Assembly: GCA_032622095.1 (NCBI GenBank)
Contig: CP136065.1
Span: 248,123,474-248,187,473, forward strand
Length of the DNA stretch: 64,000 nt
Reading direction: 5' to 3'
From: Siphonodentalium dalli
Lineage: Eukaryota; Mollusca; Scaphopoda; Gadilida; Siphonodentaliidae
The notes beneath the pieces are model-generated. The model had not been told where the DNA came from. It saw only the letters and a list, made by a program, of their open reading frames with translations, and searched no databases. Below are positions 4,260-33,890 of this stretch, piece after piece. The number at the start of each line of letters is the position of its first letter. Within the stretch, counting starts at the first letter, position 1. The position numbers and the translations under genes are program-made.

Positions 4260-4715
4260 ATGGATGGATTGCATTTGGAGGAAAAATTGAGACTGGAAGT
4301 TGGAGGACTCGATTTCATTCCATATGTTTCTATCCTTGACAAAGTTCGGAAAACTTTCGAGAAATGTTTCGTTCATGAAATACAAAATCAAATTTCAAAA
4401 GAAGTGACACTCAATTGTGAAGGATGTAAAATAGATCATCCAAGTCAGACACGACATTTACTTTGTCTTTGGACACCACCTATACAATGGGAAGATATGT
4501 TCATTGATATAGTACTACTTAAATTGAACATCTACCGAGTTATGGAACAATGGTATCCAGAAATAGAATCATTTACACCACAAGAGAAATTTGAGGCATT
4601 CAAACTTTGGAAAGATATAAAGGAAGTTGTTCATGCAAACTGTATCCAATTTAATTCGGCTTTTGTTGACTTGTGGTGTGAAAAAGTAAAAACATACTAC
4701 GAAGATAAACACTAG
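4260..4715 (+). CDS. Cys/His-motif protein shared by both Polinton-like copies (no PC4 domain here)
   Basis: A 151-residue uninterrupted frame starting four bases after the capsid stop. The informative segment is CEGCKIDHPSQTRHLLC (about residues 59-75), with spacing C-x2-C-x9-H-x2-C and a shared Ser-Gln before the His. Copy B has the same spacing and the Ser-Gln (CFGCINNCASQKDHDMC). A helical-looking, Trp-containing tail follows (YRVMEQWYP, LWKDIKEV). The motif suggests a small zinc-binding site, perhaps for nucleic acid or protein contact in virion assembly or expression; this is inference and I do not recognise a named family. The gene lies between the capsid and protease genes here, but after the protease in copy B. 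Confidence 0.55.
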   Translation: MDGLHLEEKLRLEVGGLDFIPYVSILDKVRKTFEKCFVHEIQNQISKEVTLNCEGCKIDHPSQTRHLLCLWTPPIQWEDMFIDIVLLKLNIYRVMEQWYPEIESFTPQEKFEAFKLWKDIKEVVHANCIQFNSAFVDLWCEKVKTYYEDKH

Positions 4716-5141
4716 CGAACTTCAGCATATACTAGACAAATCATCCTACCTATGTTCATTGTATGGTGTGGTGTGTGCAAAAGATCAGTTACCACACGAG
4801 AAACCTCATCATGTAAAAGCATACATAGTAAATACACATACGTCAGAAAAGCCAGGAGAACACTGGGTTGCAATTTTCTTCAACATCACGGTACAAACGT
4901 GTGTGGTATCGACTGCATATTTGCTTTACATTTCTTGAAAAGCGGATATGGTATAAAAGTATTAGTTGAAATGAATTTTGATGGTGACTACTTCAAAAAT
5001 GATAGAAAAGTATTTGATTGGTTTCATAGAAACTATGAGCCCTTACGAAAAGAATCAGAAACATTACCCAAAACATGTATTTCACAAAGACTTACTGTGA
5101 ATTTCAGTGTTGATAAAATGTGTTCATTACCAATTGTTTAA
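4716..5141 (+). pseudogene. Adenain-like cysteine protease (copy A), internal deletion
   Basis: Remains of a protease homologous to the one at 32759-33121. The His block (GEHWVAIFFN) is readable around 4856-4887. The Gln/Cys block (LQHHGTNVCGIDC, keeping the Q-x6-C spacing) is in another frame around 4879-4917. The stretch between them, which carries the acidic catalytic residue in copy B, is missing: the two blocks abut almost directly, so roughly 35-40 codons were deleted with a frame change. No start codon is evident. In adenoviruses and Polintons this enzyme matures capsid proteins. This copy cannot be active. Confidence 0.7.
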
Positions 5142-5294
5142 ACATGTTAAAATCATAATCAATTGTAAATATGTTGATTGTTAATGATGAAATGAGTTAC
5201 CAAATGTAAATTATGTACATTTGCATTACCAATTATTTATTGTAAATATGATAATTTCATGATTAGTTGTAAATATGTTGATTCTTAATTCAAA

Positions 5295-5300
5295 AATAAA
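5295..5300 (+). promoter_or_regulatory. Polyadenylation signal after copy A cassette
   Basis: AATAAA lies in an AT-rich tail about 155 bases after the protease remnant, followed by a T-rich stretch (5321-5334). It could end a polycistronic copy A transcript. Chance AATAAA is frequent in such sequence, so support is positional only. Confidence 0.35.
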
Positions 5301-5427
5301 AGTTATGTTGTTGAAAAACAGTGTCTGTTTTTAATGATCGTCTTCGGCAAGGTCGGTGAAGATCTTAATTCACCAAAAAAGAAACACATTTGAACTTCAT
5401 TCGGGAAAATTGGTAGAAAATCACAAT

Positions 5428-5463
5428 GACGTCGTCAACGACGTCCGCGCGTTTTACATATAA
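5428..5463 (+). promoter_or_regulatory. CRE-like palindrome plus TATA-like box
   Basis: 5428-5445 is an inverted repeat (GACGTCGT, two-base spacer, ACGACGTC) holding two CRE-type GACGTC cores. A TATA-like CATATAA follows at 5457-5463. The next ATG is at 5499, with a pyrimidine-rich CATTTCTTC about 25-30 bases after the TATA-like box. This is a compact core-promoter layout feeding the unit ending in the stem-loop at 5943. Activity is inferred. Confidence 0.45.
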
Positions 5464-5498
5464 CAAAAATCCCATTTAGAGCATATCATTTCTTCACG

Positions 5499-5929
5499 AT
5501 GGAATACCCTAAAACTGATCTTGGATCTTATGTCAGAGCCATCCGTGTATCGGCTCCGAGGGAAATTGCGGTGTGGGAGACCCTTTCCTGGCAGTATATG
5601 GTACAGGTGAAAAGTTCTTTGAACTATTCACTTTTGTCAATGCAACTTGGGCTCGCAATCCTACACTGTTCAGTGGACAGGAGACAGAAAACATCGAATG
5701 GTTTGGGACAACAGGTGGCTTACTTGCGGTGGCGGCAACCCTTCTGTGGAGAAAGCTCGTGTTTTGGGGAGAGAAGAAGCAGTACAGATTAGACGTATCC
5801 CCATTGAAGGGTGTGAGTATACCGCAAGGTATATTTCCACCTCTCATCGAGGGTTCGCTTGTGTTTCGGGAGTTGGATCAAGAGGATGGATTTGAGTTCC
5901 TAAAGACCCCTTATCCACTTTTCTTGTGA
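5499..5929 (+). pseudogene. Unrecognised short intronless gene ending in a histone-type 3' stem-loop
   Basis: The ATG at 5499 opens a frame (MEYPKTDLGSYVRAIRVS...) that stops at 5792. A second, overlapping frame is open from 5519 to a TGA at 5927-5929 and includes GTGEKFFELFTF, a hydrophobic GTTGGLLAVAATLLW segment and IPQGIFPPLIEGSLVF. The second frame ends 13 bases before a canonical histone stem-loop. One frameshift between about 5545 and 5790 would link the promoter-proximal start to that end, at about 143 codons, a histone-like size. Neither frame looks like H1, H2A, H2B, H3 or H4, and I recognise no family. It may be a decayed unknown gene with replication-dependent mRNA processing, or an unrelated sequence beside a transplanted histone 3' end. 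Confidence 0.35.
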
Positions 5930-5942
5930 TCTAACGTAAAAC

Positions 5943-5958
5943 GGCCCTTTTCAGGGCC
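5943..5958 (+). promoter_or_regulatory. Histone mRNA 3' stem-loop
   Basis: GGCCCTTTTCAGGGCC forms a perfect 6-bp stem with a TTTC loop. It is preceded by AAAAC and followed by ACCCA, matching the metazoan replication-dependent histone consensus in stem, loop and flanks. The element binds SLBP and replaces poly(A) in histone mRNAs. I did not find a clear purine-rich U7-binding element just downstream. Confidence 0.8.
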
Positions 5959-6065
5959 ACCCAAAACCTGCTATCAGATGGCTCTTACATGCACATTTTC
6001 ACAGCGCTAGCGTCTTCGAATTTATTCGAAAACTTTCGCTTTTGTTAAAAATGCACTGGTAAAGT

Positions 6066-6206
6066 AGCACAATTTACTAATGTCTCGATTTTTCTCGGTA
6101 TTATTCTAAGTTCAGTTAGTCCAGCGAAGGGGAGCGCCCTTCGCTTACAAGTTACAACACTGCCATTAGAATCCGAGAAAAAATCGACACATTCGTAAAT
6201 TGTGCT
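6066..6206. repeat. Nested inverted repeat (hairpin/MITE-like)
   Basis: Arms 6066-6098 and 6173-6206 are reverse complements over about 33 bases with few mismatches (AGCACAATTTAC against GTAAATTGTGCT). The loop contains a second perfect 8-bp hairpin at 6124-6144 (GCGAAGGG, GAGCG, CCCTTCGC). TTCGAA-bearing sequence flanks it on both sides (about 6013-6025 and 6228-6240). It looks like a small fold-back element. Confidence 0.6.
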
Positions 6207-6291
6207 CTTTTCTGTCAAAAAAAACCCCTTCGAAGCGCTCATCTTACTCTTTTGGAATCAAGCACAACCTCTAGACCTACCCTGGGCGGGT

Positions 6292-6416
6292 CACTCTGGT
6301 CCCACCCCCTCGCTCGGGGCCACTCTGGCCAATGGACCAGAGTGGCCCCGAACGATGGGTTTGTATTTCTTCTGGCACATGCAGAGTGGCCCCGAGCGAG
6401 GGGGTGGGCCAGAGTG
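6292..6416. repeat. GC-rich fold-back element with nested palindromes
   Basis: The 36-base left arm (6292-6327) and 35-base right arm (6382-6416) are near-perfect reverse complements (CCCTCGCTCGGGGCCACTCT and its complement). The core also contains GGCCACTCTGGCC / GGACCAGAGTGGCC as an inner palindrome. Its high GC content stands out from the flanks. Apparent ORFs on both strands here are by-products of the palindrome. Confidence 0.65.
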
Positions 6417-7542
6417 GCAGCCAATACTACTGGCATGATTGGGGAACACTAATCCCATCATGTTTTGAGAAGAAACATGATATGCTGACAATGCACTAAA
6501 GAGGTCCCGTTCCCACGGACAACCCGTCCCAAAGTGGAAATTACAGACACATAACGCAAGAAAACAGAGTATACATGTATATATTGCAACATTTTCTTTC
6601 ATAATGATAAATCGATATTAATATCACTGTTTACACAGGTCAAGTTTGAGGTATTATCACGTCGCGTCCGGTGGTGTATACGTCCACGATTCCTTTGGCA
6701 CACCCAATAGAGGTCGCATCCTAGATGACAGCTCAACATGGTCACCGGCAGCCATCTTGGATTTCGAGTTTGAATCCATCAGCGGACTCTACATATGCCA
6801 CAGTCATGACCGGAGCGTCCCAAACATGTATGTGTACAATCAGCCTGGGGTCTAGATATGAGCTATATTAAATTTTCCATTTTTCGTTGAAAACAAATGT
6901 ACGTCAGCGGCAATCTTGGGTTTCAACTTTGAATCCATCGACACGCTCTACAGGCCGCATTTATGAGCGGATCGTTCGAAAATGCTATGTGCACAATTGG
7001 CCTTGGGTCTAAATAGATGTGATGTATGGAATGTTTCCGTTTTCATAAAGAAAACCATGGCGCCAGTGGCTACTACCGCATTTATAGTACACACCGGGGC
7101 CTCATTTATGACTGGATCGTCGCCATATTTTATGTGTGCAATCGGACTTGGGTCTATATGTGACATGACCATTTTTTTCCGATTTTTCCTATAAGAACAT
7201 TGCGGCCGGTGGCCTTCTTTGATTTCGACTTTGAATCTATCTGCACACTTTACACTATATACAGGCAACATTTATGACCAGATCGTCCTCAATTTTGATG
7301 TGTACAAACGGTCTGGGTCTGAATGAGAGCAATCGGGTTTACCCTGATTCTCAATGAAACAAAATGGCTGTCCACTGCATGATCATGAAATTAGCTATGG
7401 AGGTTGATATTGGCATATAGATGAGAACGAGTGCATTTGCATGTGCTTGCCTTTCTCAAACATGGTGGTCATCTTGGATTTCCCCCATTTTAACTCTATT
7501 ACAGGCTACAACATTCATGCATGGGTATATTGAAGTTCAATG

Positions 7543-7605
7543 GGAGAGAGGAAGAGAGAGTGGGAGAGGGAGAGAGAGATAGAGAGAGAGAAAAAAAAAG
7601 AGGGG
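7543..7605 (+). repeat. GA-rich microsatellite inside R1
   Basis: A run of GAGAGAG with occasional T and an A-rich end, repeated at the same place in units 2 (about 8418-8450) and 3 (about 9822-9860). Confidence 0.7.
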
Positions 7606-9857
7606 GAAGGCGGCAGTGGTGAAGACGAGACTGAATATCGTTCGGCTATTGGAGTTATGGTGAGTACTTTTAGTTCAACTACGTGAAGGTGTTGTTTAGA
7701 AGACGACGTTTTATCTGATAACCACGCAAGTTTGGCACATGTAAAGATAAATTTGGGGAACACTATTCCCATCATGTCTTGAGAAGAAACATGATATGCA
7801 GACATAATGCACTGAAGAGATGCCGTTTTCAAGGAAAACCCGTCCCAAAGTGGATACAGATACTTAACGCAAGAACACAGAGTATATATATTGCAACATT
7901 GTCTTTCATAATAATAAATCTATATATTAATATCACTGTTTACACAGGTCAACTTTGAGCTATTACCATGTCGCGTCCGTAAGACTACAGCGGTGGCGTA
8001 CGTCCACAATTCCTTTGGCACACCGTAAGGTCGCATCCTAGATGTCAGCTAAACATGGCCACCAGCAGCCATCTTGGATTTCGAGTTTGAATCCATCAGC
8101 GGGCTCTATATACCTATACTGCAGCCATTTCCGAATAATCCCAACAATGTATGTGTACAATCAGCCTGGGGTCTAGATGTGAGCCATATCGAATGTTTCC
8201 ATTTTTCGTTGAAAACAAATGCACGTCGGTGGCCATCTTGGGTTTCAACTTTGAATCCATCGACACGCTCTACGGGCTGCATTTATGACCGGACTGATTA
8301 TGTATGCACAGCCTACTCACTACACAAACATGTTTGCACACCAACCAACCCACTACATTTCGGAAAGTCACTACGAAGATTATGTGCATGTCTGCATGAG
8401 TATATAGAAGTTCAATGGGAGAGAGATAGAGAAAGAGACAGGAGAAGGCGGATGTGGTAAAGACGAGACTGAATATCGTTCGGCTATAGGAGTTATAGTG
8501 TGTACTTTAATTCAACTACGCGGAGGTGTGGTTTATAAGACGACATTTGACCGGGTAACCACGCACGTTTTGCACCAATATGGATATATTTGGGGAACAA
8601 TATTCCCATCATGTTTTGAGAAGAAACAAGGGACAGAGAATTCCATCTTGATATGCAGACATAATGCATTGAGGTGATCCCGTCCCCAAGGACAACCCGT
8701 CCCAAAATGGAAATTACAGATACTTAACGCAATAACACAGCGTATATATACAGCCGCCTTCTCTCTTTCATGATAATAGATATATTAATATCACTGTTTA
8801 CACAGGTCAAGTTTGAGGTATTATCAAGTCGCGTCCGTAAGACTCATCTAGGATGCGAACTCTATAGGGTGTGCCAAAGGAATCGTGGACGTATACGACA
8901 CCGCCCAGCTACACATGGTCACCGGCAGCCATCTTGGATTTCGAGTTTGAATCCATCAGCGGACTCTACATAATTATGCCGCAGTCATGACCGGATCGTC
9001 CCAACAATGGATGTGTACAATCAGCCTGAGTTCTAGATGTGAGCTATATCGAATTTTTCCATTTTTCGTTGAAAACAAACTGATTGCACGTCGGCGGCCA
9101 TCTTGGGTTTCAACTTTGAATCCATCGACACGCTCTATAGGCCGTATTTATGAGCGGATCGTTCGAAAATGTTATGTGCACAATTGGCCTTGGGTCTATA
9201 TAGATGTGATGTATGGAATGTTTCCGTTTTTCGTAAAGAAAACCATGGGCGCAAGTGGCCACTACCGCATTTATAGTACACACCGGGGCCTCATTTATGA
9301 CTGGATCGTCGCCATATTTTATGTGTGCAATCGGACTTGGCTCTATATGTGACATGACCATTTTTTCCGATTTTCCTTTAAGAACATTGCGGCCGGTGGC
9401 CATCTTTGATTTCGACTTTGAATTTATCTGCACACTCTACACTATATACAGGCAACATTTATGACCTCAATTTTGATGTATACAAACGGTCTGGGTCTGA
9501 ATGAGAGCTATCAGGTTTACCCTGATTCTCACTGAAACAAAATGGCTGTGCACTGCATGATCATGAAATTAGCTATGGGGGTTGATATTGGCATATATAT
9601 GAGAACGGGTGCATTTGCATGTGCTTGCCTTTCTCTAACATGGTGGTCATCTTGGATTTCCCCCATTTTAACTCTATTACAGGCTACAACATTCGTTTGC
9701 ATGGACTGATCATGTATTCACAGCCCACTCACTACACAAACATGTTTCCACACCAACCAACCCACTACATTTTGGAAAGTCAATATACGAAGATTACGTG
9801 CATGAATATATTGAAATTCAATGGGAGAGAAGGAGAGCGAGCGAGAGATGGAGAGAG

Positions 9858-9861
<4 letters not shown>

Positions 9862-9896
<35 letters not shown>
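9862..9896 (+). repeat. (AT)n microsatellite
   Basis: About 35 bases of alternating AT/TA within R1 unit 3, next to the GA tract. It gives spurious Ile-Tyr ORFs. Confidence 0.9.
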
Positions 9897-9899
<3 letters not shown>

Positions 9900-10037
9900 A
9901 GAGAGAGGGAGAAGGCGGCTGTGGTGAAGACGAGACTGAATTTATCGTTCAGCTATTGGAGTTATGGTGTTCAACTGCGCGGAGGTGTTGTTTAGAAGAC
10001 GACATTTGATCGGGTAACCACGCACCTTTTGCACAAA

Positions 10038-10060
10038 TCTCATATATATTTTTGAAGACC

Positions 10061-10097
<37 letters not shown>

Positions 10098-10557
10098 ATG
10101 TCTGTCCTTAATACAAATCTACGATTCTCGACCGATCGGGACGAAACTTGGTACGTGCGTGTAGTTTGACCAGGCGGTGGTCGTTGTCGTATTGGCGAGC
10201 CCGTGCGACACCCGTGCAGCGCATGCGCAGACGAGATCTCGGAAACTGGTGGAGCTATCGACTTGAAATTTGGTATGTGAATGTATCTTGCCCCGAGTAC
10301 GAATTTTATCGGGTCGCCGAGCCCGTGCGACGCCAGCTTCGCGCATGCGCAGACGAGATCTCGGAAACGGGTGGAGCTATCGACTTGAAATTTGCTATGT
10401 GAATGTATCTTGCCCCGGATACGAATTTTATCTGGTCGACGAGCCCGTGCGACGCCAGCTTCGCGCATGCGCAGACCAGATATCGGAAACGGGTGGAGCT
10501 ATCGACTTGGAAATTTGGTTTTTGAATAGCCCGGACAACGTCGGGCTCATCGGCTAG
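10038..10557 (+). mobile_element. Helitron-like non-autonomous unit 1 of a head-to-tail chain
   Basis: It begins TCTCATATATATTTTTGAAG after an A and ends CTAG at 10554-10557, with a short hairpin (CCCGGACAACGTCGGG) just upstream. A TCTG-rich tract follows the 5' end. The body is tandem ~120-base monomers containing CGCGCATGCGCAGACGAGAT and GAAACGGGTGGAGCTATCGA. A TC 5' end, CTRR 3' end and 3' hairpin without TIRs are Helitron hallmarks. No Rep/helicase is present. Confidence 0.65.
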
Positions 10558-11278
10558 TCTATCTATTATATATTTTGGAAGATCTGTCTGTCTGTCTGTG
10601 TGTGTGTTCGCGATGAACTCGAAAAACGGCAGACCCGATTTCGATGAAACTTGGTATGTGTGGGTATTTTCGGCCGGGGACGAACATAGGCATATTAATT
10701 TGTCCGTGCGACGTGACCTTGAAATCGGGTAATTTCAAGGTTAAACGCCCGAATATCACGGGATTTCAATGAAACTTGGTATGTGTGGGTATCTTCGACC
10801 GGGGAGTGGCATAAACCTATTAATTTGTCCGTGCGACGTGACCTTGACCTTGACATCGGGTCATTTCAAGGTCAAATGCCCAAATATTACGGGATTTCAA
10901 TGAAACTTGGTATGCGGGGTACATTCGTATGGGGAGTCTCATAAGCATATCCATTTGCCCGTGCGACGTGACCTTGACCTTGAAATCGGGTCAATTCAAG
11001 GTCAAATCGCCAATTTTGATGGGATTTCGACGAAATTTGATACATGGGGGTACTTTTGTCAACTGAGTGAAATCGTGACCCCGACCTGACCTTGACCTTC
11101 AAAATAATAAATTCAAGGTCAAATCGGGTAAAACCGGATGGATTTCGACGGGCACGTTTGTCGGGTACTTTTGTCCGGGCAGTGTTTTGGACTGGTCGAA
11201 TCGTGACCCCACTTGACTTTGACCTTCAAAATGGACAATTCAAGGTCAAAGCCCGGACGAAGTCGGGTCACCTTCTAG
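10558..11278 (+). mobile_element. Helitron-like unit 2
   Basis: It begins TCTATC directly after the CTAG of unit 1, with TATTATATATTTTGGAAGAT next, and ends CACCTTCTAG at 11278. The body has about four ~130-base tandem monomers containing GATTTCAATGAAACTTGG and GTGACCTTGACCTTGAAATC. The 3' hairpin CCCGGACGAAGTCGGG is about ten bases from the end. Confidence 0.65.
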
Positions 11279-11642
11279 TACTATATATTTTTGAGACTTC
11301 GTATATATGTGTGAATGTATGTACTTCATAGAATCCAAAACGCGTGTAAAGATTGAGCTCAAACTTCCTATGTAAGTGTCAAATCACACCGACACGACCG
11401 TGGTCGCGGTTTAGAGAAGCTCAGAGCACCCGTTCTCCAATCTCAAATCACCGCAAAGGCACGGCGGGGGTTAATCAAGTGATTATTTAATGAGCGTTTG
11501 TTTTTGACGCATCTCTATAAAGAGCGTCTGTTTCCCATTCAACGTTATTCGCATCTGCAGAGTTATACGGGAACGCAAACGTTATCGCTCGAAATTTATT
11601 CCCTGCGAGCACGGATGGCGCGCTTTGTTTTTACAGTATATA

Positions 11643-13788
11643 TGTTACAGTAAATCAGTGAAATTAGTAATTACGCGAAATCCCTAGGAATTACATGAAA
11701 CCACTAAACATGGTCCGTGGTTACACGAAATTACTGAATGTGTCAGGGATTTCATGAAACCACTAAAAGTGGCTAGGGATTACGCGTAATCACTGAAATT
11801 TGTTAATTGATTTTACACATTCTTACTGGTCAGATTTCAGTAAATAAGTGTAATGGATTTTAAGAGTCTCATTTGCTACTTTACACAATATAAGTCCAAA
11901 CAAGTTGTCTCAATGACTAATTACCTTCTCTGTTGGCATTATTATAAATTAACAGCTAAGTGCTATTATGGAAGTTGTTTATGTTAATCATTTGAGCGAT
12001 ACTAAAATTAATAGCTGCTCATTACTATAAATACTGGGTTGTTTTCTATACATTCATCTTCATTCAGAAATGGCGTCCGATAACAAGGAGGAGAGGTTTA
12101 AAAATGAATTGTTTATGCAATATGAGCTGTGCAGTAAAAATCTCTTTCAGATATCGGAATATTCTAAAGTTATTACTCAACTGAAATTAGCTAGTGAAAA
12201 TTCTAAAACCAAGGATCGGAACGCTTACTATTTGCTGAGCAAGTAAGTACATTTTATAGTTAATTTGTTTTGTAGTCCTTATTGCACATTGATAGCTACA
12301 TGTAATTGAAGATTACTAACAACATAATTATGTTTTGTTTTTAATATAAAAGTTAATAATTCGAATAATAGTTATTGTATAATTTATAATATTATATATC
12401 AAAATTTGCATGCCAGTATCACATTTTCTTTAAATTAATGACCCGTATGTTTGTCATTACAGATATGAAATCATGCAGTGCGGTGATGTCGAGAAACTGA
12501 TCAAACGACGTAGCAACCCTGAGGAACCTATTCTATATTTCGTCACAATGGAGAAACGTTTGATGTCATTCAACGAGCACACCTCGCTACTGGTCATGGC
12601 GGCCGCGACAGAATGATAAAAGAATTACAGAAAAAATACGCAAACATCTCAACAAAAGCTCTAGAGCTCTTCAAATCGTTGTGTATGGAGTGTCAGAAAA
12701 AGAGGGTTCGGCCGAAGACGAAAGGGGTGGTGGTGCGACCAATTCTGACGAAAGAGTTTACGAGTATATGTCAAGTGGATTTGATTGATATGCAATCCCT
12801 AGCAGTCTCCGACTATAACAGCCTAACATGTAAAAACAAGTAGATGATGACTTTGTATTGCGCTAAGTGAAAATCATCCGTGCTTCTGTTTTGTCTACAA
12901 AAAAGTGAAACTAAATTTGTAACTGGTATATTTCCATTTAATAAATTAAAGGCACGTGAGGCCTTAGTTGTCGAAAATATTCACATTTGTTCCAATCACC
13001 GTAAACAGAAAAAAACATTAAAACGCATACAGTTTCGTTCATATACACCTTGACCATCGCGTAAACAGCATGTTATCATAAATACCTACTATATTTTACC
13101 TTAGCAAGAGCCTGATTGTGTTACAGAAGACATCACAATGCTGCTGGCTAATCACACACAAATGGCATAAACGCCCTTTATTCGTTCCATATAAGTAATT
13201 CACCAACAAAGAACGCTCTTTATGTTTACCATCATAATATAAACAAACACCAGAAAAGTAACTTTTTTGTGCTTTTGTTTACATAACAATGGTCAAATAT
13301 ATGACAATAACATACTGTTTATGCGATATTTCTTATTTATATACGGACAAAGTCTGTCTAGATTTTGTTGTTCTTTCTGTTTGTGGCGGTTTTTGACGGG
13401 TGGAAATATTTTCACAGGATACCCACTGCCAAGGCCAACCGTACCTTTAAAGTATCGTTTAGCTAATAAATGTTTAAAAAATCGAGAAACACAGGAACAT
13501 TGATGATGATTTATCTTAGCATCAAACATCTTATTGTATAAATGTTTGTAATATGACTATAATTTTTATGTATTTCATAACTTGTTTGCAATAAAAGAAT
13601 TTAAACTTTAACTTGGTTGTCCTTCAGTAATTTCATGAAATCCCTGGTGCCTAAAATCAGTAATTACGCGAAATCCCTGAATTTTCTAGTAATTTCATGA
13701 AATCCCTACTCAGATCAGGGATTTCATGAATTTACTAAACGATTCAGGGATTTCGCGTAATTACTAATTTCACTGATTTACTGTAACA
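11643..13788 (+). mobile_element. Ginger-like DNA transposon, internally deleted
   Basis: 2,146 bp bounded by 43-bp perfect terminal inverted repeats (11643-11685 and 13746-13788) starting TGTTACAGTAAATCAGTG. They are flanked by TATA at 11639-11642 and 13789-13792, a 4-bp target-site duplication. A TGTNR terminus with a 4-bp TSD is diagnostic of Ginger elements as I recall them. Subterminal copies of GGGATTTCATGAAA and its complement (11740-11790, 13630-13760) may be transposase-binding sites. The interior encodes a spliced, truncated integrase on the plus strand. The perfect TIRs imply a fairly recent insertion. Confidence 0.8.
12070..12840 (+). pseudogene. Truncated Ginger/KRBA2-like integrase, two exons
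   Basis: Exon 1 (12070-12242) starts MASDNKEERFKNELF and ends at GTAAGT. The intron is 12243-12462 with a TTGTCATTACAG acceptor. Exon 2 gives YEIMQCGDVEKLIK. A frameshift at about 12550-12560 separates this from the following frame, which reads RAH..TGHGGRDRMIKEL and FKSLCMECQKKR, a zinc-binding HHCC domain (His codons 12578 and 12595; Cys codons 12682 and 12691). GVVVRPILTKEF and QVDLIDMQSLA with the first catalytic Asp (12778-12780) come next. The frame ends at 12840, so the rest of the DDE core is missing. KRAB-A-domain protein 2 (KRBA2)-type genes share these blocks. AATAAA follows at 12940-12945. Confidence 0.75.
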
Positions 13789-14503
13789 TATACACCGAAA
13801 TCATCCCACATAATCACGAATATAGCATCAGATTTCTCCCCAGATATACCGTTATAAAGCTACTGGAATCTGCCAATCTACGGGAAATTCCAGGGAATGC
13901 CGATTGAGCTCAAACTTGCTACCTACGGGAAGTGTCATATATATGAGTGTGTCCTTTATAGACTCTAACCGATTGAGCTCAAACTTGCTAAATAAGAAAA
14001 TAGCCCCCAAGCCGTAAATATCAACAACAACGATATTGCTACCTACGGGGAGCAACGTTATTAGCATCTGCATAATTATGCAGAGAGAAAGTGCTTTCCT
14101 ATTTTTAGAACGCAACACATGTTTACGTCGCGTTGGTGATTGAGGTTCACAACGGGGTTAATTGACTGTCCGCTCTTTGCGACGATGAGGTTCACGGCGG
14201 GGACTATTGACCAACACTCACAATTTCGTCTTTTGCATCAGATACCAACACCTCGACCGATCGGGACGAAACTTGGTACGTGAGTGTAGTTTGACCAGGT
14301 GGTCGTCGCTGTCGTATTGGCAAGCCCGTGCGACGCCAGATTCGCGCATGCGCAGACCAGATCTCGGAAACGGGTGGAGCTATCGACTTGAAATTTGGTT
14401 TTTGAGTAGCCCGGTCCTGTACGGGGTTACATTGAAAAACTAAAATTAATGGATCGACCAAAGCCATGGGACGAATGCCGCCAGTGGCGGGCTAACCTGC
14501 TAG

Positions 14504-19255: not shown

Positions 19256-19260
19256 CAGTG

Positions 19261-26045: not shown

Positions 26046-26430
26046 AATAAGTGATATTACAATCAACGTTTGAGCATAACACGAAACTCTCCATAGGGTT
26101 AAGTGTTAAATTTTGATCGCAACTGTAGCCAGCAAGAATCATCTGATCACATCCATTCTTTTTAAAACTACGTCTGTGTTTCATACTTAGTATTTTGAGG
26201 TATATCAGTACGCGCATATCATCATACGCAAAATGGCGCCATTTATCCAAAGTTCTATAATCTCTATAGGGCTCAGTGTTAAATTTTGATCACAACTGTA
26301 GTCAACAGGAATGAACCGATCACATCAAAATTTTCACAAATACATGTAACGGTCATATCTAGTAGATTGGAGAAGTTTCAAATCGCACCGACCACCATAC
26401 GCCAGATGGCACAATCTATCGTTTTCAGTA
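26046..26430 (+). repeat. Duplicated ~190-bp segment
   Basis: AGTGTTAAATTTTGATC.CAACTGTAG recurs at about 26102 and 26272, followed in both by GAATCATCTGATCACATC / GAACCGATCACATC and CATACGC.A.ATGGC. Two diverged direct copies. 26430-27060 shows nothing further. Confidence 0.5.
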
Positions 26431-27059
26431 AATACGAAACGCTCTCTAAATTATGTTGATCCCGATTTAGGCCGACCCGCCAAAATTCAAGAATGGAAAC
26501 AAGTCAATCCTGAAAACACACCTACTAGGCATACATAATCCGTTTTTAACAAAACAAAAATGCAAAATGACATAAGGAATCGCACAAACACAAATGAAAA
26601 GCTCATTCTGGGATCTCAGGCCTATATAGCGGAAATGTCATTACATTTCTTGATTAAGTACCCACACGTATAAGTTCTAGGGACGTGGCAAGAGGTTTCC
26701 CGTGGTAGAGCTCCATCAAATTTCCCACCATCTGCACCCTCTCCCCTTGAACCAAACATCAAACTCACACGTTAGCAGAATGCCTTTTCCACCCCCTTGG
26801 AAATATCCAACATGACACACCCTAAGATTGGAAAATTAGCAACTTTTATTGGTTGAAAAATCAAACAATGAGAACAGTTCCAACCTATATACGGTGTCAA
26901 ATTAATGTCCAACTAATGTTGTGTCAGGCATGAAATTTCCAACTGCTGGAAATGTACCAAAGTTTAGTTTAAACATATTTATTTGTCAAATTTAGATAAC
27001 ACATGATATATAACACATACATTTGTTTATACAGACAATGTGATTGGAGGACAAGTGCT

Positions 27060-27640
27060 GCCTCACTTAAGCTTTGGTCTATATGTGACATGACCATTTT
27101 TTTCCGATTTTCCTTAAAAAACATGGCGACCGGTAGCCATCTTTGATTTCGACTTTGAATCTATCTGCACACTCTACACTACAGGCAACATTTATGGCCA
27201 GATCGTCCTCAATTTTGATGTGTACAATCGGTCTGGGTCTGAATGAGAACTATCAGGTTTACCATGATTCTCACTGAAACAAAATGGCTGTGCAGTGATC
27301 ATGAAATTAGCTATGGAGGTTGATATTGGCATGTAGATGAGAACCAGTGCCTTTGCATGTGCTTGCTTTTCTCAAACATATGGTGGTCATCTTTGATTTC
27401 CCCCACTTAAACTCTTTATTACATGCTACATTATTCGTTTGTACGGACTGATTATGTATTCGCAGCCCACTCAATACACGAACATGTTTGCACACCAACC
27501 AACCCACTTCATTCTGGAAAGTCACTATACGATGTCAGTTAAACATGGCCACCGGCAGCCATCTTGGATTTCGAGTTTGAATCCATCAGCGGACTCTACA
27601 TATACCGCAGTCATGACCGGATCGTCCCCAAAAAATTATG
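27060..27640 (+). repeat. Partial R1 repeat
   Basis: Matches the central part of R1 units: TGACATGACCATTTTTTTCC, GACTTTGAATCTATCTGCAC, CATGTGCTTG, CCATCTTGGATTTCGAGTTT. It leads directly into the minisatellite. Confidence 0.7.
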
Positions 27641-28816
27641 TGTACAATCAGCCTGGGGTCTAGATGTGAGTTGATATCGTGTACAATCAGCCAGGGGTCT
27701 AGATGTGAGTTGATATCGTGTACAATCAGCCTGGGGTCTAGATGTGAGTTGATATCGTGTACAATCAGCCTGGGGTCTAGATGTGAGTTGATATCGTGTA
27801 CAATCAGCCTGGGGTCTAGATGTGAGTTGAATCAGCCTGGGGTCTAGATGTGAGTTGAATCAGCCTGGGGTCTAGATGTGAGTTGATATCGTGTACAATC
27901 AGCCAGGGGTCTAGATGTGAGTTGATATCGTGTACAATCAGCCTGGGGTCTAGATGTGAGTTGATATCGTGTACAATCAGCCTGGGGTCTAGATGTGAGT
28001 TGATATCGTGTACAATCAGCCTGGGGTCTAGATGTGAGTTGATATCGTGTACAATCAGCCTGGGGTCTAGATGTGAGTTGACTCAGCCTGGGGTCTAGAT
28101 GTGAGTTGAATCAGCCTGGGGTCTAGATGTGAGTTGATATCGTGTACAATCAGCCTGGGGTCTAGATGTGAGTTGATATCGTGTACAATCAGCCAGGGGT
28201 CTAGATGTGAGTTGACTCAGCCTGGGGTCTAGATGTGAGTTGAATCAGCCTGGGGTCTAGATGTGAGTTGAATCAGCCTGGGGTCTAGATGTGAGTTGAC
28301 TCAGCCTGGGGTCTAGATGTGAGTTGAATCAGCCAGGGGTCTAGATGTGAGTTGACTCAGCCTGGGGTCTAGATGTGAGTTGAATCAGCCAGGGGTCTAG
28401 ATGTGAGTTGACTCAGCCTGGGGTCTAGATGTGAGTTGAATCAGCCAGGGGTCTAGATGTGAGTTGACTCAGCCTGGGGTCTAGATGTGAGTTGAATCAG
28501 CCTGGGGTCTAGATGTGAGTTGACTCAGCCTGGGGTCTAGATGTGAGTTGAATCAGCCAGGGGTCTAGATGTGAGTTGAATCAGCCTGGGGTCTAGATGT
28601 GAGTTGACTCAGCCTGGGGTCTAGATGTGAGTTGAATCAGCCAGGGGTCTAGATGTGAGTTGAATCAGCCTGGGGTCTAGATGTGAGTTGAATCAGCCTG
28701 GGGTCTAGATGTGAGTTGAATCAGCCTGGGGTCTAGATGTGAGTTGATATTATGTGTACAATCAGCCTGGGGTCTAGATGTGAGTTGAATCAGCCTGGGG
28801 TCTAGATGTGAGTTGA
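27640..28816 (+). repeat. 28/39-bp minisatellite expanded from an R1 segment
   Basis: Near-perfect tandem units of 28 bp (AATCAGCCTGGGGTCTAGAT, then GTGAGTTG) or 39 bp (the same plus ATATCGTGTAC). Two variable sites (AATC/ACTC and CCTGGGG/CCAGGGG) alternate in part of the array (about 28300-28480) as a 56-bp dimer. The unit is the R1 sequence at 6835-6860 and 8155-8185. There are no spacers, so it is not a CRISPR. Confidence 0.9.
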
Positions 28817-29640
28817 TATCGAATTTTACGGATAATGTGCCCTTAATGTATTCTACAAATGTTCTAAATTATGAGATTATTGACGTCACTCATGAACTCA
28901 TGTGAGATTGTGGTTGCGTGTTCTTGACTATTTATCATGTAGCTAACATCTGGGACATTGCGGGAAGTGACCACATTGTACGATTATCGTGAGGCAACGT
29001 TTGGCACACTGCACGGTATATTTCTCTGTCCACTATGACGACAGAATACGTAATTCCGAGCAAGGATACATTCCGGTAACGTCGTGGACTCGGGGTAAGT
29101 TCGTCGGTAACGCTCATTGCCGGACGGCCGCGGCAATTGGACACAATAGACTATTCTCCATTTGTTCTGCATTATTTCGCCGATATTAAAGGACATTTAT
29201 TTGCAAATCTCACCTCACGCATATATGTATGCAGGAACTTGGCATTTATGAAGCAACTGTTTTGTAGGACATTGATTGACAATTCTTCCGAAGAAATCAT
29301 ATCGCGAGAAAAACAATTTTATATTCAATTCCTTGAATATCTGGAATTTACCATTTTCATGGATTAACTTAACGTTTTTAATAACAGATGTAATTAGATG
29401 TAACTGCCACAACAAGATGAACACACACCATGTCAGTGCCGATTATCGATACACATGCAGATGAATGCCGAGTTTTTCGCATATGATTGAATGTACAACA
29501 CAGGATAAGTAAGAATTCCCATCCAAGTGGAATAACCATAAACTGACGAATTCATGTCGTACATGGTGTTATGTCGGTCGCGCTGGTGTCAGCCGTGCAA
29601 TAATATTCACAATATAACTATGTGTAACAGGATATAGACC

Positions 29641-29800
29641 AAGCTGGAATACTGGTACATGTAAGTTCATAAGCCAAGCCAAGCTGGAATACTGGTACAT
29701 GTAAGTTCATAAGCCAAGCCAAGCTGGAATACTGGTACATGTAAGTTCATAAGCCAAGCCAAGCTGGAATACTGGTACATGTAAGTTCATAAGCCAAGCC
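29641..29800 (+). repeat. Four perfect 40-bp tandem copies
   Basis: AAGCTGGAATACTGGTACAT, then GTAAGTTCATAAGCCAAGCC, repeated four times without a mismatch. 28817-29640 and 29801-30119 show no credible gene. Confidence 0.9.
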
Positions 29801-30119
29801 AAGCCGTTGATGGTTTCGACAGACGAGTAGACTATGATCGAATCCGCTTGTAGTACCGTAGCTTAGGTAGTAATACACGATTTCCAGCAATGTTGCCAAC
29901 ATGGGAGGGGGTACTGTACTTCAAATCAATACTGAGCCAATATCTTTAGCATCATGTCCCACCAAGCATGTTTTAATTCGACAGAAATTTTAGGTGTAAT
30001 CATTTGTCTGTACTTTAGCTTCTTCGTACAATTTGTCATTGAATTATGCCCCTTGGGTTGCACACACAAAACGCTCAATTTTACCCATTTTTGTACTCAA
30101 ATTGGCCATTTTCAACCCA

Positions 30120-30349
30120 AAAACAGACCATGATAGTGCGAATGTCAGTAAATAAGATTCTTCCACCTGATAGAGCTATGGGGGGGGGTGGTTTCTATTT
30201 GACCCATTTTTTCGGACTCGGCCCGAAATATTTTCGGCCCAAAAAGTGGCCATTTTTTAATATGTGACAGTTTGCCACATTTTCCGAAATTTTCCCGACC
30301 GAGCAGAGCGAAAACTGGAATTCGACCCACTCCCCCCCCCCCCCCCCCC
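30120..30349 (+). repeat. CCGAAATTTTCCC-type repeat, ending in a C tract
   Basis: Contains TTTCGGCCCAAAAAGTGGCC, GTTTGCCACATTTTCCGAAA and GACCGAGCAGAGCGAAAACT, shared with 42040-42240 and related to 53515-54535. It stops at GACCCACT, followed by a pure C run that leads into copy B. Confidence 0.65.
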
Positions 30350-30360
30350 TCAGCTAAGAA

Positions 30361-31090
30361 ATGAACAGTTTTTATATTACTCTCCCGAGCAATGCTTCTA
30401 TGGACTATTACCCGAAGAACACGGTGGCTCAATTCACCACCAAACTACCCGCTTCAATCAACCTCGAAGGACAATGGGAGGTAGACCTCGCTGAGATACA
30501 GTTTACCTATTCGTGGTATACCGTTTCTAGAGATGGTGTTTGGTTTGAGGTGAAGAGAAATAACAGATACCGAACGACCTATTTACCAGTAGGCAATTAC
30601 GAAAATCTGCAACAAATGATATATGAGCTGTACATACAACGTGACTCAATATCAAAACCATTATATCGCGTTCACCTACAACGAATCTTCAAATTTTTTA
30701 GAAATGTCTATCAGAGAAAGGACGACTGTTAAGGTCAGTGAAATGTTCGCGCATATCATGGGTATGGACGTGCGTGAAATGAAGACCGGATATCACGAAT
30801 CGGTGCACCCTGTCAGTATCGCTAGGGCGAAATTATCCTCCGTCTACGTGTATTCAGATGTGGTGAAAGAACAAATAATCGGAGATACATACACCCCGCT
30901 GCTTCGAACGGTTCCGATCACCGTAAACTACGGAGAGCAATGCAGTCAAATATTCAACCGAATTTATTACCTACCTATCAATAAGAAGAATCTCGACTCC
31001 ATCGAGATCAATATAATGACAGCAACCGGTCTTCCAGTGTCATTCTTAGCCGGTAAATCAGTGGTAACGTTACATTTTCGCAAATTATGA
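30361..31090 (+). pseudogene. Penton-like minor capsid protein (copy B), one frameshift
   Basis: The first frame (30361-30732) starts MNSFYITLPSNASMDYYP and contains INLEGQWEVDLAEIQFTYSW. The second frame continues to 31090 with VSEMFAHIMGM, RTVPITVNYG and a SIEINIMTATGLPVSFLAGK end. A frameshift lies between about 30640 and 30720. Gene order, N-terminus and C-terminus match copy A (1753-2572). It would form the single-jelly-roll vertex protein if the Polinton analogy holds. The stop overlaps the next start as ATGA (31087-31090), as in copy A. Confidence 0.75.
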
Positions 31091-31427
31091 GGACCGCTAA
31101 CTGTTGCGACGGTAGCCTATATGACGCTTACTATAGGAAACAAGTCGGCAGAGGTCTCCCAGTTTTCGCGGGAGCTAGAACTCAGAGGGGCTACGATAGT
31201 ATTTTCGGAGGTATTCGCAACGCTTTACTACCGTTGATGAGAACAGCTGGCAAACATCTGCTTTCTGGTGGGATAGGTTTAGCCACCGATGTGATTGAAT
31301 GCGGTGACAAACCGGGGGACAAACCGGCAAGAGAGTGTTGAATGATCTCAGTAGGGTCAAGCCTATAAAAAGCAAGAAGCCCAGAAAGAAACTCATTACC
31401 AAGAAGAGTAAGGACATATTCGGTTGA
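31087..31427 (+). pseudogene. pVI/pX-like basic virion protein (copy B), frameshifted
   Basis: The first frame (31087-31341) has YYRKQVGRGLPVFAGARTQR, then GYDSIFGGIRNALLPLM and an amphipathic GKHLLSGGIGLATDV. A frameshift at about 31320-31335 leads to a second frame with a Lys-rich tail ending KKSKDIFG at 31427. The Gly-rich segment before a hydrophobic helix resembles adenoviral pVI/pX-type precursors. The DIF end is shared with copy A. Role inferred from position between penton and capsid genes. Confidence 0.65.
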
Positions 31428-31431
31428 TATA

Positions 31432-32741
31432 ATGGCTCTCATAAACCCAAGACAGCGGAGAGTGTTAACAGTGAATTAGATCTTTTTACGTTACCGAATA
31501 CCCAGACCTCGGTGCTTAAAGCCTCCTGGGTAGAATACAGACCCGTTTCTACGATAACTCACGGAAGTCCTATATAATTTCACGTTGAAGGAGTCGGAGA
31601 GGACTTCGTCGATCTATACAATTCTCATATTCACGTTAAAGCTAATATAGTGAGGCAGGATGGAGGAGATCTGGCGGCCGGAGCTAATGTCGCCCCTGTT
31701 AACAATTTTCTCCATAGTATGTTTTCTCAAGTAGACGTCTCACTGAACGATAAATTAATTACATAATCTACCAACACTTACCCCTACACCGCCTATCTAC
31801 AGACTTTAATCAGTTTCGGTCCGGCGGCTAAAGATTCGCAGCTAAGTAACGTTTGTTGGGTTAAGGACACGACCACTAAAATGGAGACTACCGGAAATGA
31901 CAACGTCGGATATAGACTCAGGAAAGAATTGGCGGCTACCAGTAAGGACTTGGACATGATAGGCAAATTACACCTCAGTGTTTTTAATCAAAACCGATAT
32001 CTGCCAAATGGTGTAAATGTTCGTTTGAAATTAATTCGCTCCAAAGACTCGTTCTGTTTGATGTCGTCGGATGTAGAGGGTACCTACAAGGTGAACGTGA
32101 AATAAGTTTCTCTATTCGTGCGCAAAGTATGCGTTCAATCGGCTGTAAATTTAGCGATAATAAATGCTATGAAGTGCGGAAATCTCATGTACCCTATACA
32201 GCGAGTGGTTTGCAACACTTTTTCGGTGCATAACGGTAGCATGTCGCTAACCAAAGAACACTTATTCCAAGGTCGAGTCCCGCGTCGTGTAGTCCTCTGT
32301 TGCGTGGACAACCAAGCATCCAACGGAGCAGTCGCCAAGAACCCTTACAATTTGAAAAACTTTGACATTAATTTCGTAACTCTATCCTTGGATGGGGTTT
32401 ACATACCTAGCAAACCGCTGAAGCCCGATTTCGAAAATCAAGCTGTAGCTAGGAGTTACGCCTATTTGTTCCAAGGATCGGGGCGCTTCTACGAAGATTC
32501 GGGAAATGGGTTAACGATAAAAGATTTTATTAACGGATTCGCGGCTTGGCCTCTCGATTTAACACCCACCTTGTCAGCTGGAGATGGGAATTTCGAACTA
32601 GTCAAGAATGGGAATTTGAGATTGGAGATAGGTTTCGCTACTGCACTACCCAACACTATAAATGTTATTGTATATGCCGAGTTCGATGACCTCATTCAAA
32701 TTGATTCATCGAGAAATATCATCTTCGACTTCCTAACATAA
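31432..32741 (+). pseudogene. Major capsid protein, F54H12.2-like (copy B), several breaks
   Basis: The ATG at 31432 is in a short frame that ends at a TAG near 31477; the rest is in another frame. That frame is open to 32741 except for TAA codons at 31575-31577, 31764-31766 and 32103-32105. It contains VNNFLHSMFSQVDVSLNDKL, NTYPYTAYLQTL, RYLPNGVNVRLKL, KEHLFQGRVPRRVV, NLRLEIGFATAL and NVIVYAEFDDLIQID, in the same order as copy A. Two of the TAAs align with Glu and Ala in copy A; the third lies in a diverged stretch. The long intact C-terminal part (from 32118, 207 codons) could mislead annotation as a full gene. Confidence 0.8.
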
Positions 32742-32758
32742 CACAGTTATAAGACAGG

Positions 32759-33121
32759 ATGGACGGCGGTCAGATTGAAGCGTTTTTATTAAGAGATCTT
32801 TTCGCGGGGAAGACGTTCGTCGGGGTGTTCGCTCGAGATGACTTGATCGGGGTTAAATTCAGACCCCCATTTTCCCTGGTAGCGAATACGGACAGACACC
32901 ACGAACTGGGGCGTCATTGGGTAGCTATACACGTTAACAGCCTCGGGACGGGTGCGTATTTTGATAGTTACGGAGCGGGACCTTTCCATATACACAAGTT
33001 CACAAACTTCCTAGATGAGAATGCTAGCTCGTGGAACTATAATCATATACGACTCCAGGGTCATTGGTCTGAGGTCTGCGGCCTTTACTGCATATATTTT
33101 CTGAAAAGCGTTAATAGATGA
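32759..33121 (+). CDS. Adenain-like cysteine protease (copy B), catalytic residues present
   Basis: A 120-residue uninterrupted frame. His53 (GRHWVAIHVN), Asp69 (YFDSYG), Gln100 (RLQGHW) and Cys107 (EVCGLYC) match the adenovirus protease set in order and near-identical spacing, including Gln-x6-Cys. The enzyme processes virion precursors in adenoviruses and, by inference, in Polintons. It starts 17 bases after the capsid stop. It is shorter than adenain (about 200 residues), with the end just after the Cys helix, so the C-terminus may be lost or naturally short. It stands out as unbroken between damaged genes. Expression is not shown. Confidence 0.8.
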   Translation: MDGGQIEAFLLRDLFAGKTFVGVFARDDLIGVKFRPPFSLVANTDRHHELGRHWVAIHVNSLGTGAYFDSYGAGPFHIHKFTNFLDENASSWNYNHIRLQGHWSEVCGLYCIYFLKSVNR

Positions 33122-33210
33122 GCGTCGATGACTGCTATAACTGAAGCGTTCAGCGAATGGAACTTCGCCTCCAACGACTATAATATAATCAGAGCGATAA
33201 TCGATGGAAA

Positions 33211-33247
33211 GGCGGTCGTTTCAGACCGCCGACGAGCGACAGTCGCT
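33211..33247. repeat. Two short hairpins upstream of the PC4-like gene
   Basis: GGCGGTC / GACCGCC (33211-33230) and GAGCGAC / TCGCTC (33234-33247) form adjacent GC-rich hairpins in the gap between the protease and the PC4-like gene. Function unknown. Confidence 0.45.
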
Positions 33248-33261
33248 CGATCGATAACGTA

Positions 33262-33890
33262 GGCGGTTCCGATAGCTTCTTTAAAACGAGAATTTCGCAG
33301 GAGGGAAGCCATCTGAGCGACAATTTATTTCTCACAAACAACTCCGAAATCATGATCCATTTGGGTAGAACTATCTACGCGGACGTCTCGCTTTACATGG
33401 GGAAACCGAAAATCCACATACGGAAATACTATCAGAAAGACGGCAAAAACGTCCCGACGACCTACGGGATTGCTTTGGACCCGAGCGAGTTCAATATTCT
33501 GCGAGATAATATTGATAGGCTCCAAGAACTCGTCCATCTGAAGATGTTACCGAAGAATTTCTTCTCAGAAACTCTGGACGAACACTCGACTTTGAGAGCT
33601 ATACTGCTGACTACCTACACCGAGATGGGGAAGAAAGCCGTTGACTCGGAGTTGCAGAGTATGTGTTTCGGTTGCATTAATAATTGCGCGTCTCAAAAAG
33701 ACCACGACATGTGTTTGGTGATGATATCGATCGGATCGAAGTCTATGAAACGGCGATGAAAAAACTAAATAGAACTGCGTTATTCGCTAAATTCAGGGAA
33801 GCTGCGAAGAAAAATAACATTGAAGCGACGTTGAGTGAGTTTCAAGCTATAGTTATATCTGACCGAGAACTTCGTGAGGCTATCATCTGA
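33262..33890 (+). pseudogene. PC4-like domain fused to Cys/His motif (copy B), frameshifted
   Basis: The frame is open from 33184; the first ATG is at 33352. The segment GKPKIHIRKYY, then YGIALDPSEFNILRDNIDRL (about residues 17-62 from that ATG) fits the PC4/Sub1 single-stranded DNA-binding fold: a beta strand with IRKYY, a G..L.P.E..L turn and a C-terminal helix. After a linker, CFGCINNCASQKDHDMC repeats the Cys/His spacing of the copy A protein at 4260. A frameshift near 33715 leads to the last frame, ending at 33890 (KKLNRTALFAKFREAAKKN). PC4 proteins bind melted DNA and promote transcription or replication; a viral role here is inference. Confidence 0.6.

What the first reader, a model, noticed from the sequence alone, without database searches (positions are those of the whole stretch)
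4260..33890. Shared Cys/His motif, fused to a PC4-like domain in only one copy
C-x-G-C...SQ-x2-H-x2-C has the same spacing in copy A (4260-4715) and copy B (33352-33890). In B it follows a PC4/Sub1-like domain; A has none. This suggests an uncharacterised zinc-binding cargo protein that gained or lost a single-stranded DNA-binding module, possibly controlling late transcription or replication.
Basis: partly seen in the sequence, partly recalled or inferred. Interest (0 to 1): 0.75.

Follow-up and report, generated by a model that had tools for sequence, protein, structure and literature searches.

The report
PC4 module fused to Maverick gene
Virus-like Maverick elements in this animal genome carry a small cysteine/histidine protein that I could not match to a named family, and in one lineage it is joined to one or two copies of a DNA-binding domain (PC4), which may make it a helper of the element's DNA copying or gene expression.

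Summary
In the window, copy A (4260-4715, 151 aa, no Pfam domain) and copy B (33352-33759) share C-x-G-C-x3-[H/C]-x-S-Q-x2-H-x2-C; B has a true PC4 domain (PF02229, E 2.6e-11). Both sit in Maverick/adintovirus-type elements (A: PolB, ATPase-like and chromodomain integrase-like ORFs, capsid-type genes, protease remnant; B: late genes only). In the 2.23 Gb genome A has at least 150 copies (no PC4 detected near 32 of 32 examined); B belongs to a PC4-bearing family whose best-kept lineage is PC4-PC4-CxGC (36 places at >=90% identity, 31 without stops). Profiles of PC4-bearing and PC4-free groups match over 77 columns (97.7%, E 1.9e-12): the shared part is a domain of about 110 residues, not only a motif. 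One branch (100/98) separates the groups: one gain or one loss of PC4. In two A-type copies examined the domain is instead in frame with the protease. Zinc, ssDNA binding and function are inferred. Best reading: an element-encoded PC4-type ssDNA-binding protein for protein-primed replication, positioned by a zinc-stabilised helical domain that A keeps without PC4.

The parts
4260..4715 (+). Copy A: intact 151-aa ORF, CxGC domain without PC4
   Evidence: >=150 genome places; AlphaFold model mean pLDDT 80.9, all helical
4416..4466 (+). Motif of A: C-E-G-C-K-I-D-H-P-S-Q-T-R-H-L-L-C
   Evidence: all nine key positions invariant in 29 of 29 close copies examined
398..1485 (+). Element A: integrase-like reading frames (broken), C-terminal chromodomain
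   Evidence: Chromo E 3.8e-7; window 398-670 matches an ORF of L070 at 1.6e-9
1499..1753 (+). Element A: small hydrophobic (membrane-type) ORF, also upstream of PC4 genes in L066, L067, L082, L083
   Evidence: tblastn 3e-5 to 1.4e-9
1753..2572 (+). Element A: penton/minor-capsid-like gene (broken)
   Evidence: homologous to B's 30361-31087 (33-36% id); name recalled
2953..4255 (+). Element A: major-capsid-like gene (broken)
   Evidence: 30-51% id to B's 31452-32738; name recalled
4752..5138 (+). Element A: protease-like remnant
   Evidence: local matches to B's protease-like ORF, E 0.001; 70-82% id to pieces of frames in L062, L092, L093
5376..5469 (+). Element A: right terminal repeat; matches L090 240-332 inverted (and L090 336-421 direct), about 14.7 kb to the left
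   Evidence: blastn 80.6% over 98 columns inverted, 82.4% over 91 direct; left end read
30361..31090 (+). Element B: penton/minor-capsid-like gene (broken)
31452..32741 (+). Element B: major-capsid-like gene (broken)
32759..33121 (+). Element B: adenovirus-type protease-like ORF
   Evidence: Peptidase_C5 E 0.0016, 18.6 bits, below cut-off 21.3
33352..33759 (+). Copy B: ORF with PC4 domain, linker and CxGC motif in one frame
33352..33537 (+). PC4 domain of B (residues 1-62)
   Evidence: PF02229 2.6e-11 (best stretch residues 3-53)
33664..33714 (+). Motif of B: C-F-G-C-I-N-N-C-A-S-Q-K-D-H-D-M-C
33711..33890 (+). Rest of B's CxGC domain, in another frame (copy B is broken here)
   Evidence: 8 of 2000 shuffles score as high, co-linear; in the relative L029 it lies in the frame of the motif

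Best explanation
A and B are decayed integrated copies of two Maverick/adintovirus-type lineages that encode homologous proteins. The shared part is a helical domain of about 110 residues built round C-x-G-C-x3-[H/C/R]-x-S-Q-x2-H-x(1-2)-C, most simply a structural zinc site (inferred). In A the domain has no PC4, in a gene between capsid protein and protease. In the other lineage it is the C-terminal part of a protein with two PC4 domains in tandem (one in the B group). A PC4 domain binds single-stranded or melted DNA as a dimer (recalled); two in one chain could form that dimer within the molecule. Most likely mechanism: the protein coats or remodels the single strands that the element's PolB displaces, as adenovirus DBP does (recalled), and may also act at melted promoters; the CxGC domain links it to another element or host protein. 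PC4-free A proteins would keep only that contact and use a host ssDNA-binding protein. Shown: domains, homology, genome context, purifying selection on one lineage. Inferred: zinc, DNA binding, replication role. The confidence is for the whole statement (lowered from 0.45 after one search showed the domain in frame with the protease in two A-type copies, which leaves more room for a virion role); for anatomy and homology alone I would say 0.9.
For: PC4 in B above the curated cut-off; two PC4 stretches in L066, E 2.7e-22; profile A8 finds PDB PC4 chains at 4.7e-12 and MoSub1 at 9e-4. Domain homology: hhalign 97.7%, E 1.9e-12 over 77 columns between 6 PC4-bearing and 12 PC4-free domains, and each HMM finds the other group. 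Genome: 36 places of the L066 protein at >=90% identity over 250-251 of 251 residues, 31 of 36 without internal stops, five identical, the query's own place included; 0 nucleotide differences in 753 between L066 and L076 on different contigs. Selection: dN/dS 0.27 for L066 against L067 (p 1.2e-4), 0.15 in the CxGC domain (p 6e-4), 0.40 and 0.30 in the two PC4 domains (p 0.06 and 0.08, not significant alone). Context: deoxynucleoside kinase (6e-54) upstream, packaging-ATPase-like ORF downstream; MCP and protease homologues on the same strand at C8 (L087). PolB in element A (PF03175 1.8e-15). Protein-primed bacterial viruses encode their own divergent SSBs (PMC8276246, passages). No PC4 found in element A: 0 significant frames in L090, L091 and window 1-6000 (best E 0.78), two independent controls and B itself at <=1e-24; 0 of 32 loci round A copies have a PC4 frame at E <= 1; 2 of 150 A places have a listed B- or L066-type PC4 place within 30 kb, none of 53 further PC4 places lies within 60 kb.
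Against: No biochemistry. The motif is lost in L083 and degenerate in L082 although PC4 is kept, so a zinc site is not needed in every lineage. In L092 and L093, the two long A-type frames fetched for the check, the domain runs in frame into the protease (E 5e-13 to PRO_B), which fits a late or virion role of the CxGC part. PC4-bearing members are known here from one genome only: 0 of 11 outside homologues has PC4, and scans of IMG/VR, GTDB contigs and (B alone) phages found none. Host PC4 is mostly described as a transcription cofactor (listing). The A type has over 150 places without PC4, so PC4 is not essential to this kind of element. The DNA-contact residues of PC4 were not tested one by one. 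Copy numbers and absence near A are limited by lists of 150 scored candidates.
Confidence: 0.4

Rival explanations
1. Transcription rival: the PC4-CxGC protein is a late-gene coactivator that holds melted viral promoters or contacts host RNA polymerase II, the zinc-like domain giving specificity.
For: PC4/Sub1 is a transcription cofactor in eukaryotes (abstract starts in search listing); the gene lies beside late genes in B and beside the packaging-ATPase-like gene in L066.
Against: No promoter data; two tandem PC4 domains next to a deoxynucleoside kinase fit DNA metabolism as well. Not separable by sequence.
Confidence: 0.28
2. Virion rival: the CxGC domain belongs to a late, protease-linked protein (assembly or genome core), and PC4 merely adds DNA affinity for packaging or condensation.
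For: A's gene lies between capsid protein and protease; in L092 and L093 it is in one open frame with the protease; in L066 the gene lies just before the packaging-ATPase-like gene.
Against: L092 and L093 are 2 loci picked for their long frames; 2 further A-type long frames gave no (L046) or partial (L062) protease match; most A frames end after about 156 codons. Nothing shows the protein in particles.
Confidence: 0.22
3. The CxGC domain is not a zinc site but a conserved helical protein-binding module; its Cys/His are buried or redox-active (compatible with the other readings).
For: AlphaFold gives an all-helical fold with the motif between helices; one lineage lost the Cys; P0005 and P0009 each lack one Cys or His.
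Against: Five clustered candidate ligands with near-fixed spacing in 13 rows: C56 and C69 invariant, C53, H60, H66 nearly so.
Confidence: 0.3
4. The A/B similarity is chance: random Cys/His in unrelated reading frames.
For: A-B BLASTP alone E 0.004; the 27 motif hits in IMG/VR looked like chance, 0 of 27 in a credible ORF.
Against: Profile-profile E 1.9e-12 over 77 columns; A finds L066 by tblastn at 2.7e-5 over residues 27-112, in a set of 14 loci.
Confidence: 0.02
5. The PC4 fusion is an artefact of decay or insertion in copy B.
For: Copy B is broken and its neighbours too; in L069 a PC4 frame does run on into a reverse transcriptase.
Against: Eight B-group loci, the window's own included, share the fusion at 89-100% identity, and other lineages have it in open frames of 258-292 residues.
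Confidence: 0.01

Closest known systems
PC4/Sub1 family (PF02229), human PC4 1pcf/4usg, MoSub1
   Same: PC4 core over residues 1-61 of B; profile A8 at 4.7e-12
   Different: Two PC4 domains in one chain in most full-length relatives, followed by a CxGC domain; encoded by Mavericks
Adenovirus DBP and other SSBs of protein-primed viruses (B35SSB, phi29 SSB)
   Same: Proposed role; DBP is also a zinc protein and its gene lies next to the protease gene (recalled)
   Different: No sequence match to them came up in the searches made; PC4 type instead of the OB-like fold proposed for B35SSB (PMC8276246, passages)
'Ziftr' zinc-finger genes of some adintoviruses (PMC11071296, passages)
   Same: Zinc-motif accessory gene in an adintovirus-type genome
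   Different: Described there as remotely CTCF-like; no PC4 mentioned (0 occurrences); sequences not compared here
DUF2616 (PF11077), seen in a baculovirus gene table
   Same: Weak match of P0002 only, E 0.014
   Different: 15.6 bits against a cut-off of 25; 1 of 13 members

Membership tests
PC4 (PF02229) | Profile score over the curated cut-off | tested here: met
   B 43.3 bits, L066 78.5, L068 42.4, L029 37.8, cut-off 25; L070 with 17.9 is below it
PC4 (PF02229) | PC4 fold, dimer and ssDNA binding | not tested
Maverick/Polinton (element A) | Viral/organellar type B DNA polymerase | tested here: met
   DNA_pol_B_2 1.8e-15 in L090 5500-5910, upstream of the window in the same element
Maverick/Polinton (element A) | Retrovirus-like integrase with chromodomain | tested here: inconclusive
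   Chromodomain passes (3.8e-7); the integrase core gave no Pfam hit
Maverick/Polinton (element A) | FtsK/A32-type packaging ATPase | tested here: inconclusive
   Pox_A32 20.1 bits against 22.8; 38% identical to the L066 ORF
Maverick/Polinton (element A) | Terminal inverted repeats | tested here: met
   Inverted match of the right end with L090 240-332, 80.6%; the left end is itself palindromic, so a direct match exists too
Maverick/Polinton (both) | Double-jelly-roll MCP and penton | tested here: inconclusive
   A and B genes are homologous to each other; no Pfam match and no credible PDB match for the MCP pieces; identity recalled
Maverick/Polinton (element B) | Polymerase and integrase | tested here: inconclusive
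   None recognised among the ORFs near B that were scanned; late genes are left
Adenain-type protease (PF00770) | Profile score over the curated cut-off | tested here: not met
   18.6 against 21.3 bits for B, a 120-codon ORF
DUF2616 (PF11077) | Profile score over the curated cut-off | tested here: not met
   Best 15.6 against 25, 1 of 13 members
Zinc-binding protein | Bound zinc | not testable with these tools
   Only ligand-like Cys/His spacing

The most novel reading that the evidence does not exclude
The PC4-PC4-CxGC protein is the unrecognised single-stranded-DNA-binding protein of animal Mavericks, a PC4-type SSB for protein-primed replication, and the PC4-free A proteins of the sister lineage recruit the host's own PC4 through the same CxGC domain: fused in one lineage, separate partners in the other, which predicts that A-type proteins bind host PC4.
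Probability: 0.25. Interest if true: 0.78.

Novelty: new variant of a known kind. Interest (0 to 1): 0.6.

Why it matters
Mavericks encode a PolB taken to be protein-primed (PMC4028283, passages), and protein-primed bacterial viruses have dedicated ssDNA-binding proteins (PMC8276246, passages). Five papers in the library hold both 'Polinton' and 'single-stranded DNA-binding protein' (listing, and passages of one). I saw no PC4 domain reported for these elements in the searches I made (an open-licence library only). A tandem-PC4 protein with near-identical copies on several contigs makes the question testable, and its sister family without PC4 is a natural control for what the added module does.

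Tried and rejected

Circularity: the search that gave P0002-P0011 included a B piece; PC4-bearing relatives were fished with B or L066. The A-L066 tblastn match is free of this but was run on 14 loci chosen that way. The PC4-repeat HMM contains B, L066, L068, L070 and L084 repeats, so only L082, L083, L085 and L086 are independent controls. L070 is labelled PC4x1 in the tree script, but a second PC4 lies upstream of it with a stop in between. The names MCP, penton, protease and ATPase rest partly on recall.
Full report
What was claimed and what is there. The pattern C-x-G-C...S-Q-x2-H-x2-C is present at 4416-4466 and 33664-33714 (mean 0.00 in 100 shuffles). Copy A is an intact 151-codon ORF without any Pfam family; copy B's ORF 33352-33759 begins with a PC4 domain (PF02229, 43.3 bits, E 2.6e-11) that matches solved human PC4 chains. 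PC4 and motif are in one frame. Behind the motif copy B changes frame; the tail in the other frame scores above all but 8 of 2000 shuffles and aligns in order behind the motif.

Surroundings. Upstream of A lie integrase-like frames with a chromodomain, a small hydrophobic ORF, and genes homologous to those of B: penton-like and capsid-like (30-51% identity), with a protease-like remnant downstream. Outside the window the same element has a viral type B DNA polymerase (PF03175, 1.8e-15) and an A32-like ATPase frame (below the cut-off), and its two ends match as an inverted repeat, giving a length near 14.7 kb. For B only late genes were recognised. In A the gene lies between capsid protein and protease; in B it follows the protease.

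Is it a family? The last protein search (E <= 10) gave 11 proteins, all carrying the motif with slight changes; P0011, at E 0.32 the weakest but 71% identical to P0006, is named as from the sea anemone Exaiptasia. None has PC4 (0 of 11; P0001 was scanned in 53). An HMM from these 11 finds A at 1.3e-35 and B at 0.0014 among 1235 window frames, next best 0.93.

The whole genome. The genome search answered. The window lies in a 2.23 Gb genome of 9 contigs. B has sixteen close places at 74-100% identity, itself included, by my count of the list, and many more at 38-42%, most in open frames of about 265-292 residues. Many of these have a second PC4 match just upstream: L066 is PC4-PC4-CxGC, 251 residues from its first Met, with two PC4 stretches at E 2.7e-22. 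Searching with it (150 of 839 candidates scored) gave 36 places at >=90% identity over 250-251 of 251 residues, 31 of 36 without internal stops, five identical in protein with the query's own among them. L066 and L076, on different contigs, do not differ in 753 bases, so these insertions look young. More distant lineages are 32-33% (258-272 and 296 aa) and 28% (244 aa). A has at least 150 places at 87-100% (150 of 958 candidates scored), 101 of 150 without internal stops by my count. All nine key motif positions are unchanged in 29 of 29 A copies examined, a weak point since these copies are close.

Same domain? Six PC4-bearing domains and twelve PC4-free ones were aligned apart. hhalign joins them at 97.7%, E 1.9e-12, over 77 columns covering the helix before the motif, the motif, and the stretch behind it; each group's HMM finds every member of the other at 4e-3 or better; the motif-less L083, in neither HMM, is found by the PC4-group HMM (4.7e-10) and not by the other (0.063). 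A tree of 19 rows splits the two groups by one branch (100/98; 100% of 200 bootstrap trees; rooting arbitrary), so one gain or one loss is enough. L066 against L067 shows purifying selection, dN/dS 0.27, strongest in the CxGC domain (0.15, p 6e-4); the two PC4 domains alone are not significant (0.40 and 0.30; p 0.06 and 0.08).

Does element A have PC4 elsewhere? No frame of 25 residues or more in L090, L091 or window 1-6000 matches a PC4-repeat HMM (best E 0.78; controls L082 and L086, and B, which is in the HMM, at 1e-24 or better). The same HMM finds no PC4 frame at E <= 1 in 32 of 32 loci round A copies (30 best places and two more), while it finds the weak, diverged L083 at 9e-5. Of 150 A places, 2 have a B- or L066-type PC4 place within 30 kb, one of them the window's own B (chance mean 0.4, largest 3), and none has one of 53 further PC4 places within 60 kb. 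The lists are incomplete, because each search scores 150 candidates.

A second fusion. Some A-type places have open frames well over 200 codons. Of four such frames looked at, two (L092, L093) carry the protease behind the CxGC domain in one frame (31.7% to B's protease-like ORF, E 5e-13), one (L062) part of it (82% to A's remnant over 50 residues), and one (L046) no protease but an open frame reaching upstream. So the CxGC domain occurs with PC4 in front in one lineage and, in part of the other, in frame with the protease behind.

Context of the PC4-bearing gene. In L066 it stands between a deoxynucleoside kinase (PF01712, 6e-54) with the small hydrophobic ORF, and an ATPase-like ORF 38% identical to that of element A. 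At C8:78.17-78.18 Mb capsid (1e-59) and protease (1e-14) homologues follow on the same strand. In L068 the neighbour is a NADAR protein (5.9e-38); in L070 an integrase-like ORF (1.6e-9).

Structure. The A domain is predicted with mean pLDDT 80.9 as eight helices, the motif (residues 53-69) lying behind a 34-residue helix and reaching into a short one. The P0006 model was too poor to read its N-terminus.

How it may work. PC4 binds ssDNA and melted DNA as a dimer (recalled); two copies in one chain could form that dimer alone. Protein-primed replication displaces a long single strand (recalled), and protein-primed bacterial viruses carry dedicated SSBs (PMC8276246, passages). I therefore prefer an SSB-like role, with promoter melting and a protease-linked virion role as the chief rivals, and take the CxGC domain as the contact that both lineages need. 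The steps from sequence to DNA binding, metal and partner are inference. Results against: the Cys are lost in L083 and degenerate in L082; some A-type copies join the domain to the protease; no relative with PC4 outside this genome was found.

Known or new. Searches of the open-licence library found no paper holding both Polinton and PC4 or adintovirus and PC4; of 31 papers with three of five terms, the 10 listed held neither Maverick nor Polinton. In PMC8097293, PMC4028283, PMC11071308, PMC10120064 and PMC11071296 the term PC4 does not occur in the main text (term look-ups, not whole readings). The main adintovirus paper was not held. So the gene looks undescribed within what I could search, in a known kind of element.

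Noticed in passing
L084, L085, L086, L089: A second class of tandem-PC4 genes (161-214 aa frames) with a different Cys/His tail and no CxGC motif; in L085/L089 the gene and a BIR-RING (IAP-like) neighbour lie in inverted arms of at least 1830 bp, 99.8% identical; several other such genes occur in inverted pairs in the list.
   Followed up: partly
L092, L093 (C4:146.86 Mb, C6:5.24 Mb): A-type CxGC domain in one open frame (329 and 338 aa) with the downstream protease-like domain.
   Followed up: partly
C3:93470100-93517283 and C1:272648348-272659448 (genome): Copies of A in regular arrays: three about 23.4 kb apart, and three exactly 5333 bp apart.
   Followed up: no
L069 (C8:77312500-77316500): A PC4 reading frame runs open into a reverse transcriptase (open frame 855 aa), probably a retroelement insertion.
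   Followed up: no
L082, L083: PC4-bearing relatives in which the CxGC motif is degenerate or lost while the rest of the domain is recognisable.
   Followed up: partly
L068 500-1078; L066 414-1091: NADAR-domain and deoxynucleoside-kinase genes as neighbours of the PC4 gene.
   Followed up: partly
window 56086-64000: Tandem repeat of a 2.29 kb unit, with ORFs of 381 and 205 aa on the minus strand in the complete units, no Pfam match at E <= 0.01.
   Followed up: partly
window 36733-40559: Open LINE-type retroelement: endonuclease and reverse transcriptase (954 aa) followed by a zf-RVT ORF.
   Followed up: no
L087 184-2883: 900-aa open frame with C2H2 zinc fingers on the strand opposite to the capsid genes.
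   Followed up: no
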